64,000 nt of DNA from Bartonella sp. 220B (GTDB lineage Bacteria > Pseudomonadota > Alphaproteobacteria > Rhizobiales > Rhizobiaceae): NCBI RefSeq assembly GCF_026930205.1, contig NZ_JANHOI010000001.1:310001-374000 (forward strand), in the 5' to 3' direction. A program made the position numbers and the translations under genes. This document shows positions 6,961 to 21,695 of this stretch, in pieces; within the stretch, counting starts at the first letter, position 1, and the number at the start of each line of letters is the position of its first letter. Under the pieces are notes generated by a model that saw only the letters and a list, made by a program, of their open reading frames with translations, was not told the origin of the DNA and searched no databases.

Positions 6961-7029
6961 TAAATTTGAAATAAGAACATAGTAAATGAAGTATTAATGG
7001 ATTGATTCTGAAAACATATGGGAGCATGG

Positions 7030-8523
7030 ATGCGGATCAAAAGTCTGGAATGGGTTACTTCTAATAGATTGCTTTGTAGTGTTTTGTTGTGTTTTTTTAT
7101 CTTATCAGGATGTATGGTTGGTCCTAATTACAAGAAAACATTTTTTCGTGTTCCAACAAGTTGGGGAGAACAAACTGCGCAGACTACAGGACATCCAGTT
7201 GTGCTTGCTGGGTGGTGGAGGCGTTTGAATGATCCTGTTTTGAATGCGTTAGTAGAGATTGCAATTTCTGGTAATAATAATGTTGCTGTTGCCAAAGCAC
7301 GGATTCGCGAAGCACGTGCTACTTTAGGGCAAGTTCGGGGAGCTCTTTTGCCGAATATAACAGGTTCAGTTTCAACAGATCGTTCTGGTTATCTGGAACC
7401 TCATGCTATTATGAGCCAATATATGAATCGCTTTAATAGTGGTTTTGATGCGAGTTGGGAGCTTGATTTTTTTGGTGGACATAAAAGAGCAATTGAAGCC
7501 GCGCGTTATGGTTTTGAAGCTGCTATAGAAGATATGCGCGCTACCATGGTGACATTGTTGGGAGATGTTGCAACAAATTATGTTCAAATGCGTGGTTGGC
7601 AGCAAAAGTTGCTCATTGTGCGACAAATTGCTGTATCACAGCGCAAAACATATGCATTGATGCGTGCCAAATTAAAGGCTGGCGATGTTTCAGAACTCGA
7701 TGTTTCCAATGCGCAAGCACAAACCGCTAATACAGAAGCCGATATAGCCCAGATGGAAGCAAATTTGGCAATGAGTATTCATCGTCTTTCCGTCTTGACG
7801 GGTCGTGTCCCTATGGCTTTGAAGGATCTTCTGCAAAAAAATGCAAAACAAGCAAAAATTCCGCAACCAAAATGGCCAATACCAGCAGGAATTCCGGCTG
7901 ATATTTTGTTGACACGTCCAGATCTACGGCGAGCAGAGCGCCAATATGCACAAGCAACAGCACGGATTGGTCAACGTGAGGCAGAACGCTATCCATCACT
8001 CACTTTAACAGGAAATATTTCAACAGCACCGGAGGCAATTAGTGAATTATGGAAGACGTCAACAATTTCTTGGTTGTTGGCATCTGGTCTTCGTTTTCCT
8101 TTTTTTAATGGAGGACAGATTGAGGCTTCTATTGCCATAGCGCGGGCACAGCGTGATCAAGCTTTTATTACTTATCGGGCTGCTGTGTTGGAAGCATTAG
8201 AAGATGTGGAAAATGCACTTGTGAGATTAACCAAAGAACATCAGCGTCTAGAGAAGCTTATTGTTGCAAATAAAGCTTCGCTGCATTCTTTAAAACTTTC
8301 TCGAAGCCTTTTTGAAAATGGAAATACCAGCTTCCTTGAATTGTTAAATGCTAATCGCTCCTATTATTCTGCGCAAATGGCTCTTAAAGATAGCCGAGTT
8401 TCTTTGGTGACTCAATATATTGCACTTATGAAAGCGTTGGGTGGTGGCTGGGATGGCGTTGTGGATGTGTATCGTCCAGAGGTTATTGATGGTACATCCC
8501 GTTCGCGTGCAAAGGTAGGATAA
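7030..8523 (+). CDS. NodT-family outer-membrane efflux lipoprotein
   Basis: This is a TolC-like outer-membrane channel of the NodT/OprM family. A signal peptide ends in the lipobox LSGC (Cys about 28 from the ATG at 7030), after which CMVGPNYKK is the classic start of OprM-like proteins. Two outer-membrane efflux repeats follow, rich in Ala/Gln/Arg helices, including the second-repeat motifs LTRPDLRRAERQ and FFNGGQIEASI. I prefer the ATG at 7030 because GGAG sits just before it; the ATG at 7018 gives four more residues. It starts a three-gene operon, touching the adaptor gene at TAATG. With it and the ABC permease it would form a tripartite pump; the substrate is unknown. Confidence 0.92.
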   Translation: MRIKSLEWVTSNRLLCSVLLCFFILSGCMVGPNYKKTFFRVPTSWGEQTAQTTGHPVVLAGWWRRLNDPVLNALVEIAISGNNNVAVAKARIREARATLGQVRGALLPNITGSVSTDRSGYLEPHAIMSQYMNRFNSGFDASWELDFFGGHKRAIEAARYGFEAAIEDMRATMVTLLGDVATNYVQMRGWQQKLLIVRQIAVSQRKTYALMRAKLKAGDVSELDVSNAQAQTANTEADIAQMEANLAMSIHRLSVLTGRVPMALKDLLQKNAKQAKIPQPKWPIPAGIPADILLTRPDLRRAERQYAQATARIGQREAERYPSLTLTGNISTAPEAISELWKTSTISWLLASGLRFPFFNGGQIEASIAIARAQRDQAFITYRAAVLEALEDVENALVRLTKEHQRLEKLIVANKASLHSLKLSRSLFENGNTSFLELLNANRSYYSAQMALKDSRVSLVTQYIALMKALGGGWDGVVDVYRPEVIDGTSRSRAKVG

Positions 8524-9743
8524 TGAAAAAAAACTTTATCAAAAATTTCATTACAAAACGCAAAAAACTTTCCTTATTTTTAACCGTTATATTTGTGATT
8601 GTCTTGTTATGGTTGCGTTCTGTTTTTTTGGGAACATCAACACCAGCTTATATGACTGCGGTGGTAAAACGTGGTGATATCGAGGTAAGTGTTTTGGCTT
8701 CTGGTCTTGTCCGCCCTTATCGGTTGGTTGCTGTTGGTGCACGTGCAACAGGGCGGGTGGTGTCAATGCATGTTGCCCCAGGAAGTATTGTGAAGGAAGG
8801 AGATCTCTTAGCAGAAATTGATCCTATAGATCAAGAAAATGATCTAAAAAGAAAAAAAGCGGCATTATCTCATTATGAGGCGAGTTTAGTAGAACAAGAA
8901 GCTTACCTTTCTCTTGCACAGAAAAACTTAGAACGTCAGAAAAAAATGATCGAATCACATGCGATTTCAAGGGCTAATCTCGATGATGCCGCAACGCAGG
9001 TGAAAATACGCGAGGCACAAATTGCGCAACTTCGTCAGCAAATTGTACAAGCGCAAATTGATGTGGACAGTGCAGAGGTTAATTTGGGTTATACGCGGGT
9101 AACCGCTCCTTCAGCGGGGACAGTTTTAGCAACAATTGTAGAAGAAGGGCAAAATGTCAATGCGGTTCAGTCCGCACCGACAATTGTAATTTTAGGTGAT
9201 TTGTCAAAGATGACTATTAAAGCACAAATCTCCGAAGCTGATATTCTTAAAGTTCAGGCTGGACAACCTCTCTATTTTACAGTTTTAGGCAATTCACAGC
9301 GTCATTATGAGGGAACTTTAGAAAGGGTAGAGCCAGCTCCTGAATCCGTGCGTGCGGATGTGAGTATTAATCCTGGTGTGATAGATTCTAGCGCTTTATC
9401 ATCATCGGCTATCTATTATAATGGGATTGTCCATGTTGATAATGAGGACAATTTTCTGCGGACTTATATGACGGCGCAAATTCATATTATTTTAGGTCGT
9501 GCTCAGAATGTTTTGTTGGTTCCAAGTGATGCTTTACGGGATGAAACAAAAGACCGTAAAGCATGGGTTTCTGTTTTGGAGGGGCGAAGCAAAGTGGTGA
9601 CTAAACAGGTGACGATTGGACTTAATAATAAGGTGGTGGCAGAGGTTGTTTCAGGGCTAAAAGAAGGTGATGTGGTTATTACGGGTGCGCATGATGGTGT
9701 GATGCCAGATATCCTTGATGTCCACAGCAAAGATGAAAGCTAA
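8523..9743 (+). CDS. macA: MacA-like periplasmic adaptor subunit
   Basis: This membrane-fusion (HlyD/RND adaptor) protein bridges the inner-membrane ABC transporter and the outer-membrane channel. A single N-terminal membrane anchor spans about residues 15-33. After it come a lipoyl-type half-motif (GRVVSMHVAPGSIVKEGDLL), a long coiled coil from about 95 to 185 with many Gln/Glu/Ala, the second lipoyl half (VTAPSAGTVLATIVEEGQNV), and a beta-barrel and membrane-proximal domain. Its start overlaps the stop of the preceding gene by one base and macB follows 3 bases after its stop, so translation is probably coupled. A macrolide or peptide substrate is inferred from MacAB relatives only. Confidence 0.92.
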   Translation: MKKNFIKNFITKRKKLSLFLTVIFVIVLLWLRSVFLGTSTPAYMTAVVKRGDIEVSVLASGLVRPYRLVAVGARATGRVVSMHVAPGSIVKEGDLLAEIDPIDQENDLKRKKAALSHYEASLVEQEAYLSLAQKNLERQKKMIESHAISRANLDDAATQVKIREAQIAQLRQQIVQAQIDVDSAEVNLGYTRVTAPSAGTVLATIVEEGQNVNAVQSAPTIVILGDLSKMTIKAQISEADILKVQAGQPLYFTVLGNSQRHYEGTLERVEPAPESVRADVSINPGVIDSSALSSSAIYYNGIVHVDNEDNFLRTYMTAQIHIILGRAQNVLLVPSDALRDETKDRKAWVSVLEGRSKVVTKQVTIGLNNKVVAEVVSGLKEGDVVITGAHDGVMPDILDVHSKDES

Positions 9744-9746
9744 AGC

Positions 9747-11750
9747 ATGAAAGCAGATAAAGCAGATGCTGTCCTCGTTTTGGAAAATATCGTGCGCAAA
9801 TTTCCCGCTGGGGAAACATTTGTCACTGTTTTGAAGGACATTAATCTCACCATTAAAAGCGGTGAAATGGTAGCGATTGTGGGCGCTTCCGGTTCAGGAA
9901 AATCCACATTGATGAATATTCTAGGCTGCCTTGATCGACCAAGTTCTGGTCGTTATTGGATTTCAGGAAAAGAAACAGCCTCTCTTTGTGCCGATGAATT
10001 GTCAGCTTTGCGGCGTAATCATTTTGGATTTATTTTCCAGCGTTATCATTTATTGAATGAATTGACAGCTTTGGGCAATGTTGAAATTCCAGCTATTTAT
10101 GCAGGCTGCCCTGTGGCAACAAGAAAACAACGCGCGCAAGATCTTTTAACACGTTTAGGGATGGGTGATCGGATAAATCATCGTCCAAATCAGCTTTCGG
10201 GTGGTCAGCAACAACGGGTTTCTATTGCGCGTGCTCTCATGAATAATGCAGAGGTTATTCTTGCCGATGAACCAACGGGTGCATTAGATAAACAAAGTGG
10301 ACAAGAAGTGTTGCGTATTTTGGATGAGCTTCATCAAGAAGGACGCACCATTATTATTGTAACCCATGACATGCAGGTGGCTGAAAGAGCAGATCGTATT
10401 ATTGAAATCAGTGATGGGGAAATTATTGCCGATCATGTGACAAAGAGTGCAAAAACAAAAGCGGTGGATGCAAAAACAAAAACGGGTAATCAGTATGGAG
10501 AAAAAAATCTCGAAGATAAACAACAGCTAGGTTTTTTGCGTTCTTTTTTCGAGCGTTTTCGTGAGGCATTTGTTATGGCTTTGTTAGCTATGAATTCCCA
10601 TAGGATGCGGACTTTTTTAACAATGCTTGGGGTGATTATTGGTATTGCTGCCATTATTGCGATGGTGGCTTTAGGAAATGGGACACGAGAAAAAATTCTA
10701 GAAAATTTTAAAAGTTTAGGATCTAATACACTAACAATTTTGCCGGGAAAAAGCTTTTCTGATCCACAAGCAGAGAAAATAACAAGCCTTGTTGAAGCGG
10801 ATGCAGAAGCGCTTTCTGGTTTGCCCTATGTTTCTGGTGTAACTCCTCAGATTTCAACAAGTGCAAAGGTGCATTTTGGTGCTGTTGAAGTCAATGCTGT
10901 CATTATGGGAGTGGGAGAACAGTTCTTTCAGACACAGGGACTCAAGGCTATTAAAGGGCAGTTGTTTGATCAGAAAAGTGTGCAAGATCGAGCGGTGGAT
11001 CTGGTGATTGAAAAAGAAGCATTGTCTGTTCTTTTTCCTCATAGCCATGAGAACCCCCTTGGGAAAGTGGTGCATGTGGGAAGAGTTCCGGCGCGTATTA
11101 TTGGTGTTGTGGATCCGCAAAATCAAGCAAATGGTGGTGTATCAAATACCATACAGGTTTATTTGCCCTATACAACTGTACAAACGCGTTTTCTTGGAAC
11201 AACGCAGGTTCGTGCCATTACAGTTAAGATTGATGATAATGTGGATGCACATTTGGCAGAGACCATGGTAAAGCGCTTTCTCACAATGCGGCATGGTGAA
11301 GAAGATTTTTTCATTAGAAATTCGGAATTCTTTCGTGAGCGCATCATGGAGAGTACACATATTTTAACACTGTTGGTTTCTTCCATTGCAGCGATTTCAC
11401 TGATTGTGGGGGGGATTGGGGTGATGAATATTATGCTGGTCACAGTTTCAGAGCGGATTAATGAAATTGGTGTGCGTATGGCTGTTGGGGCACGTCAGAG
11501 TGATATTTTACAGCAATTTTTAATTGAAGCGATTTTGGTTTGTGTCATTGGTGGTGGTTTAGGGATCTTGTTTGGATTCTCCATCGGTGGTTTGTTTTTG
11601 CTCTTTAAGGCGCCTATCCACCTGATTTATACGATTGATTCCATCATCCTCTCTCTTACTTTTTCAACCCTCATAGGGATATGTTTTGGCTTTTCACCAG
11701 CAAGGCAAGCTTCACGACTTGACCCTGTTGTTGCCCTCTCACGCGATTAA
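9747..11750 (+). CDS. macB: MacB-like ABC transporter, ATPase-permease fusion
   Basis: MacB-type transporters join an N-terminal nucleotide-binding domain to a four-helix permease with a large periplasmic domain and power tripartite efflux. Walker A GASGSGKST is near residue 46, the signature LSGGQQQR near 150, and Walker B VILADEPTGALD follows it. The first membrane helix lies near residues 280-305 (MRTFLTMLGVIIGIAAIIAM). The periplasmic domain follows, then three C-terminal helices with GGIGVMNIMLVTVSERINEIGVRMA. The length of about 667 residues is normal. It is the last gene of the efflux operon. A decayed stretch resembling its 11343-11415 region lies downstream at 12156. Confidence 0.94.
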   Translation: MKADKADAVLVLENIVRKFPAGETFVTVLKDINLTIKSGEMVAIVGASGSGKSTLMNILGCLDRPSSGRYWISGKETASLCADELSALRRNHFGFIFQRYHLLNELTALGNVEIPAIYAGCPVATRKQRAQDLLTRLGMGDRINHRPNQLSGGQQQRVSIARALMNNAEVILADEPTGALDKQSGQEVLRILDELHQEGRTIIIVTHDMQVAERADRIIEISDGEIIADHVTKSAKTKAVDAKTKTGNQYGEKNLEDKQQLGFLRSFFERFREAFVMALLAMNSHRMRTFLTMLGVIIGIAAIIAMVALGNGTREKILENFKSLGSNTLTILPGKSFSDPQAEKITSLVEADAEALSGLPYVSGVTPQISTSAKVHFGAVEVNAVIMGVGEQFFQTQGLKAIKGQLFDQKSVQDRAVDLVIEKEALSVLFPHSHENPLGKVVHVGRVPARIIGVVDPQNQANGGVSNTIQVYLPYTTVQTRFLGTTQVRAITVKIDDNVDAHLAETMVKRFLTMRHGEEDFFIRNSEFFRERIMESTHILTLLVSSIAAISLIVGGIGVMNIMLVTVSERINEIGVRMAVGARQSDILQQFLIEAILVCVIGGGLGILFGFSIGGLFLLFKAPIHLIYTIDSIILSLTFSTLIGICFGFSPARQASRLDPVVALSRD

Positions 11751-19514: not shown

Positions 19515-20045
19515 AAGTCCCCTCTTTAATCATTTTTTGTTTGGAAAAATAAGCTATTGTCTTTTTGTATTTTAGCAGAATTTTCCCAAAAATTTTTCTT
19601 ATATGAAAATTTTCATTTTGAGAGTAGACTAAATGACTAAGATTTGCATTGTCAATTTTTAAAATCTGCTGCAATTCTATTAAAAAGAGCATATTTTTAT
19701 GCTGTACCATTTGTAAAGCCATTCCCGAAGCGCGAATATTGCCATGCTACAGGTTTATGACTTCTGTGCTTTGTAATATACTATTGACGGATGATGTCGG
19801 TGGAGGGAATTAAGAGCAAGGAGAGATGTTTCTTGAAAAAATACATAAGCTAGAAATAAATTGAAAAGCTAAAATGAATTTTTTGCTTGTTTTTTAGGGA
19901 AAGGAAGAAATGAAGTGAATATCCGATTATGCACGCCCTAAAAACACCTTCTTTTAAAGCATTGCTATAGCATACTGGATAATTTATTGCGTTGAATATT
20001 TTCGTGTTGCTCTCTTTTGTTCAAAAAGAGGAAATCCCCTAAGAA
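19515..20045. other. Spacer between acs and the small-protein islet
   Basis: No gene is supported here. A minus-strand open frame of 71 codons overlaps the acs start but lacks recognisable features, and its position suggests acs leader sequence. Promoter elements for acs should lie here, though I could not define them. Confidence 0.45.
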
Positions 20046-20228
20046 TTAATATAAACCAAAATATCTACATAAACTGTCAGAAATAAAGAATACAATAACT
20101 GACAATAATGATGTTGTTATAGATAATTTCCAACTCCAGCCACCGAATACTTTAGCAGAAGTAGCAAGTATAGGGACCATTATAATTATCATGCAAAACA
20201 ACCTTATAATTTTATAAAGAATGTCCAT
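20046..20228 (-). CDS. Small two-helix membrane protein, possible immunity protein
   Basis: This 60-residue protein has two hydrophobic segments (about residues 7-25 and 35-52). It resembles the preceding gene product at its C-terminus: SWKLSITTSLLS then YFGLY, compared with SWKDSLKNSLLIS then YIGLY, so the two look like tandem paralogues. Its ATG overlaps the stop of that gene by one base (TAATG), so translation is coupled. The islet is strongly AT-rich compared with its neighbours. I do not recognise a family. Its position behind a bacteriocin-like gene suggests an immunity role; this is inference. Confidence 0.6.
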   Translation of the reverse strand: MDILYKIIRLFCMIIIMVPILATSAKVFGGWSWKLSITTSLLSVIVFFISDSLCRYFGLY

Positions 20229-20431
20229 TATAAAAAATTATCTAAAAATTTATATAAACCAATATAGTTCAATAAAATACTAACAATAAAAAATATAAAG
20301 CTTATTAATAATGAGTTTTTTAGAGAATCTTTCCAACTGTAAGAAATAAATTTATAATAAAAAAGATATATTAAACCAAAAAAAACTGTTACCATGAACG
20401 TTTCAATAATTTTATGAGTAAAATCTGACAT
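20228..20431 (-). CDS. Small two-helix membrane protein, possible immunity protein
   Basis: From the ATG at 20431 this gene encodes 67 residues with two hydrophobic segments (VTVFFGLIYLFYY and SLLISFIFFIVSILLNYIGLY). A TTG at 20443 would add four residues but has no better ribosome-binding site. It is paralogous to the gene that follows and is coupled to it. It starts about 158 bases after the bacteriocin-like gene on the same strand. Small hydrophobic proteins in such positions often protect the producer, but no known family is recognised and the function is inferred. Confidence 0.6.
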   Translation of the reverse strand: MSDFTHKIIETFMVTVFFGLIYLFYYKFISYSWKDSLKNSLLISFIFFIVSILLNYIGLYKFLDNFL

Positions 20432-20588
20432 TACTAAATCCAAATTATAATATATGTGATTATAAATTATAAATATCTCTGAAGATTATCTCAGCTTATG
20501 ATTGTAGAAAATATAACTTAGATATTTTTTTGAAAACAATTATAAAATCACTAACTTCAGAGATATCTTTGTAGTTATTTTCTCTAAA

Positions 20589-20852
20589 TTAGAACCAACA
20601 CTCATGAGCTTTCTGTACAAAACCCAAACCAAAACCTCCTAAGAAACCAGTCGTGGCGCCCGTAAGACCACCCATAAGTGCACCTGGACCAGTTATAGAA
20701 CCCACTGCTGTTCCGGTTATCCCTCCTGCAATTCCATACTCAAAACCCTGTCTATTCATGTGAGACATGAAATCATTAAAGCTACATGCTCTTGCATAAA
20801 CAGGTGTTGAATCATTTAAATTATAAATTAAGCCTGAACCAAAATTACGCAT
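20589..20852 (-). CDS. Glycine-rich bacteriocin-like peptide
   Basis: This encodes an 87-residue peptide with a strong ribosome-binding site (AAAGGAGG just upstream of the ATG). Residues 1-37 are polar with one Cys (ARACSF). Residues 38-79 are a Gly/Ala/Thr-rich hydrophobic stretch with repeated GxxxG spacing (EYGIAGGITGT, GPGALMGGLTGATTG, FLGGFGLGF). The tail holds a second Cys (HECWF). The layout recalls class II two-peptide bacteriocin precursors, and AGG or MGG could serve as a double-glycine site. Two small membrane proteins follow on the same strand. No transporter or protease gene is adjacent. A phage-type holin or a structural glycine-zipper protein are alternatives. Confidence 0.6.
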   Translation of the reverse strand: MRNFGSGLIYNLNDSTPVYARACSFNDFMSHMNRQGFEYGIAGGITGTAVGSITGPGALMGGLTGATTGFLGGFGLGFVQKAHECWF

Positions 20853-21695
20853 ATAAATCCTCCTTTAATTTTGGATAAACGTATCATCATGATACATGTA
20901 GGGGCTTATCATTTCTCTTTTGAAGATATCAAATATAATTTTGAATTATATCGAATAAAAATTATTTATAAATAATAACTACATTATGTATATATGAAAT
21001 TTTATTCTTAATAATATAAAGTATTACTTATAATTTTTTTAAAATATAAGTAATAACACCATATTTTTTCTTAATTAAAGTTTAAAATTAGAAAAATTCC
21101 GCGTATAAAAAGTTGAAGTTTTTCTTTTAGTTTATGAGAACGATAATGGAATATCGTTATTGAAATTAGTCTCATTGCTATTGTTTTGTCTGCATGTATT
21201 ATGTGCATATGCACGGGATTCGTTTTTTTATTTTCTAGGCGAATATTGACCGTATGTTACGCTTTGTAGAGCACAGAAAGCCTTTATGCTATCGTTGATC
21301 TTATAGATTGCTATCCATGTTGTTTAGCGTGGCTCTTGGCACTTACTTTTATGGGCGCTTTAGGGGTTTATTTGGTTTATCAGCTTAGATGCGAATTTGG
21401 GTGCCGTATTTACGCCCATATTAAGTCTGTTTTTATCTATCTTACGCCATTGGCAAGGAGAAAGCTGTTTCTGTGGATTGGAGCGGTTGATGGCATTAGT
21501 GGTTTTTTAAATAAGAATCTTCGAAATGACTGTATGTAATGGTTTTTTCATGATTTATCACGTTTTTGCTATTGTTGTATTGTGCGATCCTTTTTCGCTT
21601 TGTATGTAGGTGCATTTGTATTATGTTATCATAACAAATGGGTTCTTTATTGATTGCAGAATTTTTTATTTTACAGCACTTTTGGTGAAGATGCG
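20853..21695. other. AT-rich spacer with a possible gene remnant
   Basis: The first 270 bases are extremely AT-rich and carry the promoter side of the bacteriocin-like gene. From about 21180 to 21540 several short frames on the plus strand encode hydrophobic stretches. The longest, 21336-21539, has 67 codons and weakly recalls YnfA-type small membrane proteins (CRIYAHIKSVFIYL, LWIGAVDG), but the match is too poor to call. I see no intact gene. Confidence 0.4.

What the first reader, a model, noticed from the sequence alone, without database searches (positions are those of the whole stretch)
20046..20852. Bacteriocin-like peptide gene with two coupled small membrane proteins
A strongly translated Gly-rich 87-residue peptide with GxxxG spacing is followed by two coupled small membrane proteins, in a conspicuously AT-rich islet between housekeeping genes. 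This is the layout of a class II bacteriocin with immunity proteins, rarely reported in Bartonella-like bacteria. No exporter is nearby.
Basis: partly seen in the sequence, partly recalled or inferred. Interest (0 to 1): 0.75.

Follow-up and report, generated by a model that had tools for sequence, protein, structure and literature searches.

The report
Bartonella peptide bacteriocin with immunity-like genes
A small glycine-rich peptide gene followed by two small membrane-protein genes is one outlying piece of a scattered, probably jointly controlled family in Bartonella that looks like bacterial weapons with matching self-protection genes, and whose main locus carries an exporter and a fatty-acid-attaching enzyme normally found with haemolysin-type toxins.

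Summary
In detail: an 87-aa Gly-zipper peptide with a strong ribosome-binding site, then two overlapping small hydrophobic proteins, in an AT-rich gap. It is not a lone islet. Of 71 Bartonella genomes 24 carry a related peptide sequence; 18 of 20 fetched loci lie between the same flanking genes, with up to eight related membrane-gene copies. The peptide domain (Cys–Gly-zipper–Lys–Cys) is homologous to peptides of one to three Cys–Cys modules at a second locus, divergent from a HlyB-like exporter, HlyD and a HlyC-family acyltransferase. Both loci, and a third in this genome, share a 15-bp palindrome (38 of 46 peptide genes; 0 of 20 membrane genes); its three perfect copies in the 1.92-Mb genome each precede such a peptide. 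Membrane proteins are homologous across loci. Best reading: an exporter-less satellite of a T1SS/HlyC-linked peptide bacteriocin system with immunity arrays, resembling Caulobacter Cdz and class II microcins but without C39 peptidase or evident double-Gly leader. Against full function here: the exporter ABC gene of this draft genome is split between two frames. Acylation of the peptide's single lysine is a hypothesis; some sister peptides have no lysine. Killing, export and immunity are inferred, not shown.

The parts
20589..20852 (-). 87-aa Gly-zipper peptide (pep); C23, K81 and C85 invariant in 14 aligned sequences; K81 is its only lysine
   Evidence: AlphaFold2 helices 25-54 and 58-86, mean pLDDT 64.6
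20859..20866 (-). ribosome-binding site AAAGGAGG
   Evidence: sequence
20881..20895 (.). operator-like palindrome GTATCATNATGATAC, perfect copy, 28 bp before the start codon
20228..20443 (-). memA, small hydrophobic protein, 71 aa from TTG (67 aa from the ATG at 20431)
   Evidence: its family is homologous to T1SS-locus proteins
20046..20228 (-). memB, small hydrophobic protein, 60 aa, overlaps the memA stop by 1 nt
20473..20566 (.). 12-bp perfect inverted repeat (20473-20484 / 20555-20566) between pep and memA; role unknown
   Evidence: no terminator-like site in 19900-21100

Best explanation
The window holds a satellite locus of a dispersed bacteriocin system. Shown by computation: the peptide is a Cys–Gly-zipper–Lys–Cys domain, predicted as two helices, homologous to peptides of one to three Cys–Cys modules encoded divergently from a HlyB-like ABC exporter (no C39 domain found), HlyD and a HlyC-family acyltransferase on another contig; peptide genes at these loci share a palindrome upstream; most are followed by tandem, homologous small hydrophobic proteins. 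Inferred: the palindrome is an operator for one regulator; the peptide closes a C23-C85 disulfide, may be acylated on its only lysine (K81) by HlyC, is exported in trans by the T1SS with a TolC-like protein, and inserts its Gly-zipper hairpin into membranes of competing, mostly related, bacteria; memA and memB are immunity proteins that block it in the inner membrane.
For: Domain homology: family A (pep) vs B (T1SS-locus modules) hhalign 96.7%, E 3.5e-10, score 49; best of 60 column shuffles 17, reversed 28 (77%), an unrelated Bartonella Gly-zipper 20 (13%). A peptide of T1SS-locus type (CGVKDYYHAA) lies inside the same array in G064 (compare). Palindrome at <=2 mismatches before 38 of 46 hand-listed peptide genes, shuffled upstreams mean 0.03, 0 of 20 membrane genes; 3 perfect sites in the own genome, all before peptide genes, one of them a locus found only through the site. 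T1SS of G049 (L056): TIGR01846 445 bits (below its cut-off), TIGR01843 and PF02794 over theirs. HlyC match in 29 of 71 genomes (E<=0.001, 28 over cut-off), RTX repeats in 14 of 71 (E<=0.01), no genome in both. All 8 genomes with an intact pep have ABC and HlyC sequence, whole or partial. memA-type family vs a T1SS-locus family 95.7% (reversed 0.6%), memB type vs another 91% (1.4%); profile A2 hits three T1SS-type loci at 1e-10 to 9e-9. 18 genomes have a full-length stop-free membrane gene, 8 an intact pep, all 8 among the 18. 37 of 38 peptides with >=2 Cys have an even number. Two OEP-family proteins in the genome.
Against: No activity, secretion, immunity or acylation is shown. In this draft genome the ABC gene is in two frames, as it also is in G070, whose peptide is the most similar; G039 is broken too, so 3 of 8 genomes with an intact pep lack an intact ABC. 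Exporter intact in 5 of 8 with intact pep vs 3 of 15 with broken pep, p 0.07 (counted by hand; G053 at a contig end taken as intact, G055 left out). 10 of 46 peptides have no lysine (three of the 10 are damaged ORFs); K at -4 from the last Cys in 27 of 38. HlyC has Tyr at the catalytic His position in 8 of 20 sequences, one gene entered twice. Palindrome weak or missing in 8 of 46. Module family B vs the unrelated Gly-zipper also reaches 59%. memA and T1SS-locus families are not all alike: memB type vs M3 only 67%. AF2 confidence is moderate. Relatedness inflates counts.
Confidence: 0.68

Rival explanations
1. Host-directed membrane peptide: a haemolysin-like cytolytic peptide acylated by HlyC that acts on mammalian or arthropod cells, with the membrane proteins protecting the producer.
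For: HlyC/HlyB/HlyD are the classical haemolysin set; Bartonella lives in blood cells (general knowledge).
Against: Tandem arrays of diverse small membrane proteins that outlast the peptide and several different peptides in one genome are the pattern of bacteria-against-bacteria weapons; no RTX repeats found in any of 29 HlyC genomes.
Confidence: 0.12
2. Intracellular toxin-antitoxin-like or stress peptide: the peptide depolarises the own membrane and is neutralised by the membrane proteins; the exporter link is incidental.
For: No exporter at this locus; the exporter is broken in 3 of 8 genomes with an intact pep.
Against: Shared domain, palindrome and membrane families with the exporter locus; paired cysteines suit an exported, oxidised peptide.
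Confidence: 0.1
3. Relic (not exclusive of the best explanation): the locus was a bacteriocin but is now decaying in this lineage, with palindrome, ribosome site and ORF not yet hit.
For: 16 of 24 related peptide sequences in the genus are broken or diverged; exporter split in G000 and G070.
Against: The three window genes, the palindrome, HlyD, HlyC and two further peptides (a third may be shortened) are open in this genome.
Confidence: 0.3
4. Structural glycine-zipper envelope protein or phage holin.
For: Weak sub-cut-off Gly-zipper hits and weak PHROGs hits, best E 0.011.
Against: All below cut-off; pep family vs an unrelated Gly-zipper control 13%; no match in phage records, plasmids or viral contigs.
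Confidence: 0.03

Closest known systems
Cdz system of Caulobacter crescentus (CdzC/CdzD Gly-zipper proteins, CdzAB T1SS, CdzI; PMC5380434, passages read)
   Same: Alphaproteobacterium (general knowledge); 84-86-aa Gly-zipper proteins, T1SS exporter, small membrane immunity protein, divergent operons
   Different: Here paired Cys, one to three modules, a HlyC-family enzyme, a shared palindrome, satellite loci without exporter, arrays of membrane genes; CdzI has three predicted TM segments; the paper deems CdzC/D likely unmodified. Direct sequence comparison not made.
Class II microcins (microcin V type; general knowledge)
   Same: Small Gly-rich peptide, T1SS, cognate membrane immunity protein, Cys pair
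   Different: No C39 peptidase exporter (only ABC_membrane and ABC_tran over cut-off in the exporter), no double-Gly leader seen
CdiC-lipidated class IV CdiA (PMC8510554, passages read)
   Same: HlyC-family lysyl acyltransferase serving an interbacterial toxin; His/Asp dyad
   Different: CdiA is a large cell-surface effector with its own secretion route; here short T1SS-linked peptides
RTX toxins and RTX bacteriocins of rhizobia (PMC3034196, passages read)
   Same: HlyC/HlyB/HlyD gene set; export by T1SS
   Different: No RTX repeats; peptides of about 71-281 aa

Membership tests
class II microcin / double-Gly bacteriocin | C39 peptidase ABC exporter | tested here: not met
   PF03412 in 9 of 71 genomes, none of the 24 with the peptide; not found in the exporter
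class II microcin / double-Gly bacteriocin | double-Gly leader | tested here: inconclusive
   by eye none before the conserved core; no bacteriocin family hit
class II microcin / double-Gly bacteriocin | adjacent immunity gene | not testable with these tools
   adjacent membrane genes are there; protection needs an assay
Cdz | Gly-zipper protein + T1SS + membrane immunity protein | tested here: inconclusive
   parts present but split over loci; homology to CdzC/D/I not tested
HlyC acyltransferase (PF02794) | family score over cut-off | tested here: met
   28 of 71 genomes over cut-off, own genome 3.1e-32
HlyC acyltransferase (PF02794) | catalytic His and Asp | tested here: inconclusive
   Asp 20 of 20, His 12 and Tyr 8 of 20, one gene entered twice; own genome has both
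RTX toxin | GGxGxD calcium-binding repeats | tested here: not met
   none of 29 HlyC genomes has a PF00353 match at E<=0.01
phage holin | match to phage families or records | tested here: not met
   no record; PHROGs best E 0.011, no holin
structural Gly-zipper family | score over curated cut-off | tested here: not met
   best 12.4 bits vs 28.9, 12.4 vs 175

The most novel reading that the evidence does not exclude
A new class of lipidated peptide bacteriocins: a HlyC-type acyltransferase, split off from RTX toxins, acylates short disulfide-stapled Gly-zipper peptides made of one to three copies of a module, exported by a T1SS without the C39-like domain and drawn from several operator-linked satellite loci; related HlyC-T1SS-small peptide loci may occur more widely in Rhizobiaceae (L151, L156, L158).
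Probability: 0.33. Interest if true: 0.82.

Novelty: new variant of a known kind. Interest (0 to 1): 0.64.

Why it matters
It would add a peptide-weapon system, with self-protection arrays and a shared switch, to a genus known for host-directed secretion, bearing on how Bartonella strains compete during co-infection. It makes testable whether HlyC enzymes act beyond RTX toxins and CdiA, and how exporter-less bacteriocin loci borrow an exporter elsewhere in the genome.

Tried and rejected
Holin, phage or plasmid origin: no match (weak PHROGs hits only). Defence system: none in PADLOC. C39 exporter: absent. Universal lysine acylation: rejected, since 10 of 46 peptides, seven of them apparently undamaged, have no lysine. 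Domain outside Bartonella: in 297 genomes of the family, few of them Bartonella, only the own genome scored strongly; 14 others at 2e-6 to 9e-5 in open frames of 227 aa or more, probably unrelated Gly-zippers. Palindrome in other Rhizobiaceae loci: none at <=2 mismatches in 14 loci. Exporter state against peptide state: p 0.07, not used as proof. MacAB as exporter: MacA/MacB-like genes are in the window, nothing links them to the peptide. The first membrane-family run had a poor M2 set and a gyrase-like protein in M8; replaced, where M5 and M6 were not rerun (in one search they match each other at 95% and the memB type at 1%).

Structure search: not run.

Full report
What is there. The three ORFs and the AT-rich gap are as described. 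The peptide has an AAAGGAGG site, and the two membrane ORFs overlap by one base. Pfam, NCBIfam and PHROGs give nothing over cut-off or convincing, PADLOC nothing. A search of the own genome with the protein finds one copy; the wider domain profile finds four places.

Distribution. In 71 genomes of the genus, 34 have a match at E<=0.1; 24 of these reach 1e-5. Of 20 loci fetched, 18 lie between the same two flanking genes (recalled as yggS and acs); L047 shows only one flank before the contig ends, L052 neither. Three more loci (G018, G021, G024) were fetched but their flanks were not mapped. The peptide is followed by a tandem series of 60- or 71-aa hydrophobic proteins, from none detected (L051) to eight places (L038). 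Their profile finds 31 of 71 genomes at E<=0.001.

Toxin-like loss. Of the 24 genomes, 8 have the peptide intact (G000, G022, G036, G039, G053, G066, G067, G070). In the other 16 it lacks the standard start, is split between frames, has stops, is cut short or has diverged (G018, G021 and G024 judged alone). A full-length, stop-free membrane gene (at least 58 of 60 positions) is present in 18 genomes, which include all 8 (counted by hand). This asymmetry fits toxin and immunity, but several copies per locus and shared ancestry also favour survival of the membrane genes.

The exporter locus. Weak matches led to loci with peptides of similar modules, divergent from an ABC exporter, HlyD and HlyC. 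ABC at E<=1e-100 is in 29 of 71 genomes, HlyC at E<=0.001 in 29 of 71, remnants included. PF00353 RTX repeats occur in 14 of 71, none with HlyC, so HlyC has no detectable RTX partner there. The HlyC protein aligns with ApxC, PDB 4whn, E 3.3e-19. The own genome has HlyD and HlyC intact and a peptide of 145 aa with four Cys beside them, but the ABC gene is split between two frames. The breaks in G000, G070 and G040 lie near codons where intact copies of other genomes have six-T runs (codon 134 in 7 of 10, codon 184 in 1 of 10); the runs in the broken copies themselves were not examined. Slippage, decay or assembly error are all possible.

Linking the loci. (a) Domain homology with controls. Against it: pair A-E is weak (41%, over 8 columns), though B-E is 96%, and the unrelated Gly-zipper control (3 sequences) reaches 59% with B and 58% with E. 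(b) In G064 the array at the window-type locus includes peptides of exporter-locus type. (c) Membrane families are homologous between loci with reversed controls mostly at noise (M2-M8 reversed control 38%, M1-M3 only 67%). A second group (M5, M6) of these loci does not match the memB type. (d) The palindrome: the best match within 80 bp upstream has at most 2 mismatches in 38 of 46 peptide genes, spacer 20-45 bp; shuffled upstreams give 0.03 on average, at most 1; 0 of 20 membrane genes have it. The 46 are peptide starts I listed by hand, including some damaged ORFs; the 20 membrane genes are a part of those known. In the window it is the only site with at most 2 mismatches. In the whole own genome there are 3 perfect sites and 3 with one mismatch, and none for the reversed pattern. 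All three perfect sites precede peptide genes; the third led to a new locus (L171) with two peptides, the second possibly shortened and without its own palindrome, and six small hydrophobic proteins. Two of the one-mismatch sites lie inside ORFs, one between ORFs.

Peptide chemistry. In 14 aligned sequences C23, K81 and C85 are invariant. K81 is the only lysine of the window peptide. Over 46 peptides, 38 have two or more Cys, 37 of these an even number; lysine at -4 from the last Cys in 27 of 38; 10 of 46 have no lysine. The AlphaFold2 model has helices 25-54 and 58-86, mean pLDDT 64.6, pTM 0.42. A hairpin would bring C23 and C85 together; that is an inference, as no coordinates were measured.

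Outside the genus. HlyC occurs in 34 of 394 family genomes at E<=1e-6, the own one included. Of 14 loci fetched, at least four (L152, L153, L155, L163) show large RTX-repeat ORFs near HlyC, while L151, L156 and L158 show a HlyC-HlyD-ABC set divergent from a short Gly/Ser-rich ORF of 82, 76 and 93 aa (the 93-aa one starts further upstream than its MGS). That is suggestive only: the output was cut, L157 and L159-L162 gave no clear peptide, and L154 and L164 were not pursued.

Known work. Papers: Cdz, PMC5380434 (passages); CdiC, PMC8510554 (passages); RTX review, PMC3034196 (passages); mite symbiont, PMC10949449 (passages). Ten searches listed no paper that by title or abstract start treats this Bartonella family; some searches listed 25 of 108, 20 of 38 and 8 of 19 papers, and only the four papers above were opened.

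Judgement. Membership in a palindrome-linked peptide family with an exporter locus is well supported (about 0.85). A bacteriocin-immunity role is likely (about 0.68). Lysine acylation of this peptide is open (about 0.35). Whether the system still works in this strain is open.

Noticed in passing
L087:9059-10725 (own genome C33): Exporter ABC gene split between two frames; in G000, G070 and G040 the break lies near a codon where intact copies elsewhere have six-T runs. Could be slippage-based switching, decay or assembly error.
   Followed up: partly
L171:5947-8228 (own genome C22): New locus with a perfect palindrome, two Gly-zipper peptides and six small hydrophobic proteins, next to an autotransporter-like ORF (name recalled).
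   Followed up: partly
L151, L156, L158: HlyC-HlyD-ABC set divergent from short Gly/Ser-rich ORFs in other Rhizobiaceae.
   Followed up: partly
L091, L100, L104 and others: HlyC-family proteins with Tyr at the usual catalytic His position, 8 of 20 sequences (these loci lack the SPLH motif).
   Followed up: no
window 7018-11750: Outer-membrane channel, MacA-like and MacB-like genes in a row.
   Followed up: no
L038:2800-4900: Three further MGSS-starting short ORFs in the G064 array with the palindrome but no or one Cys.
   Followed up: no
L170:1501-1515 (own genome C55): One-mismatch palindrome between an XRE-like and a ClpB-like ORF (names recalled); chance or regulator link unknown.
   Followed up: no
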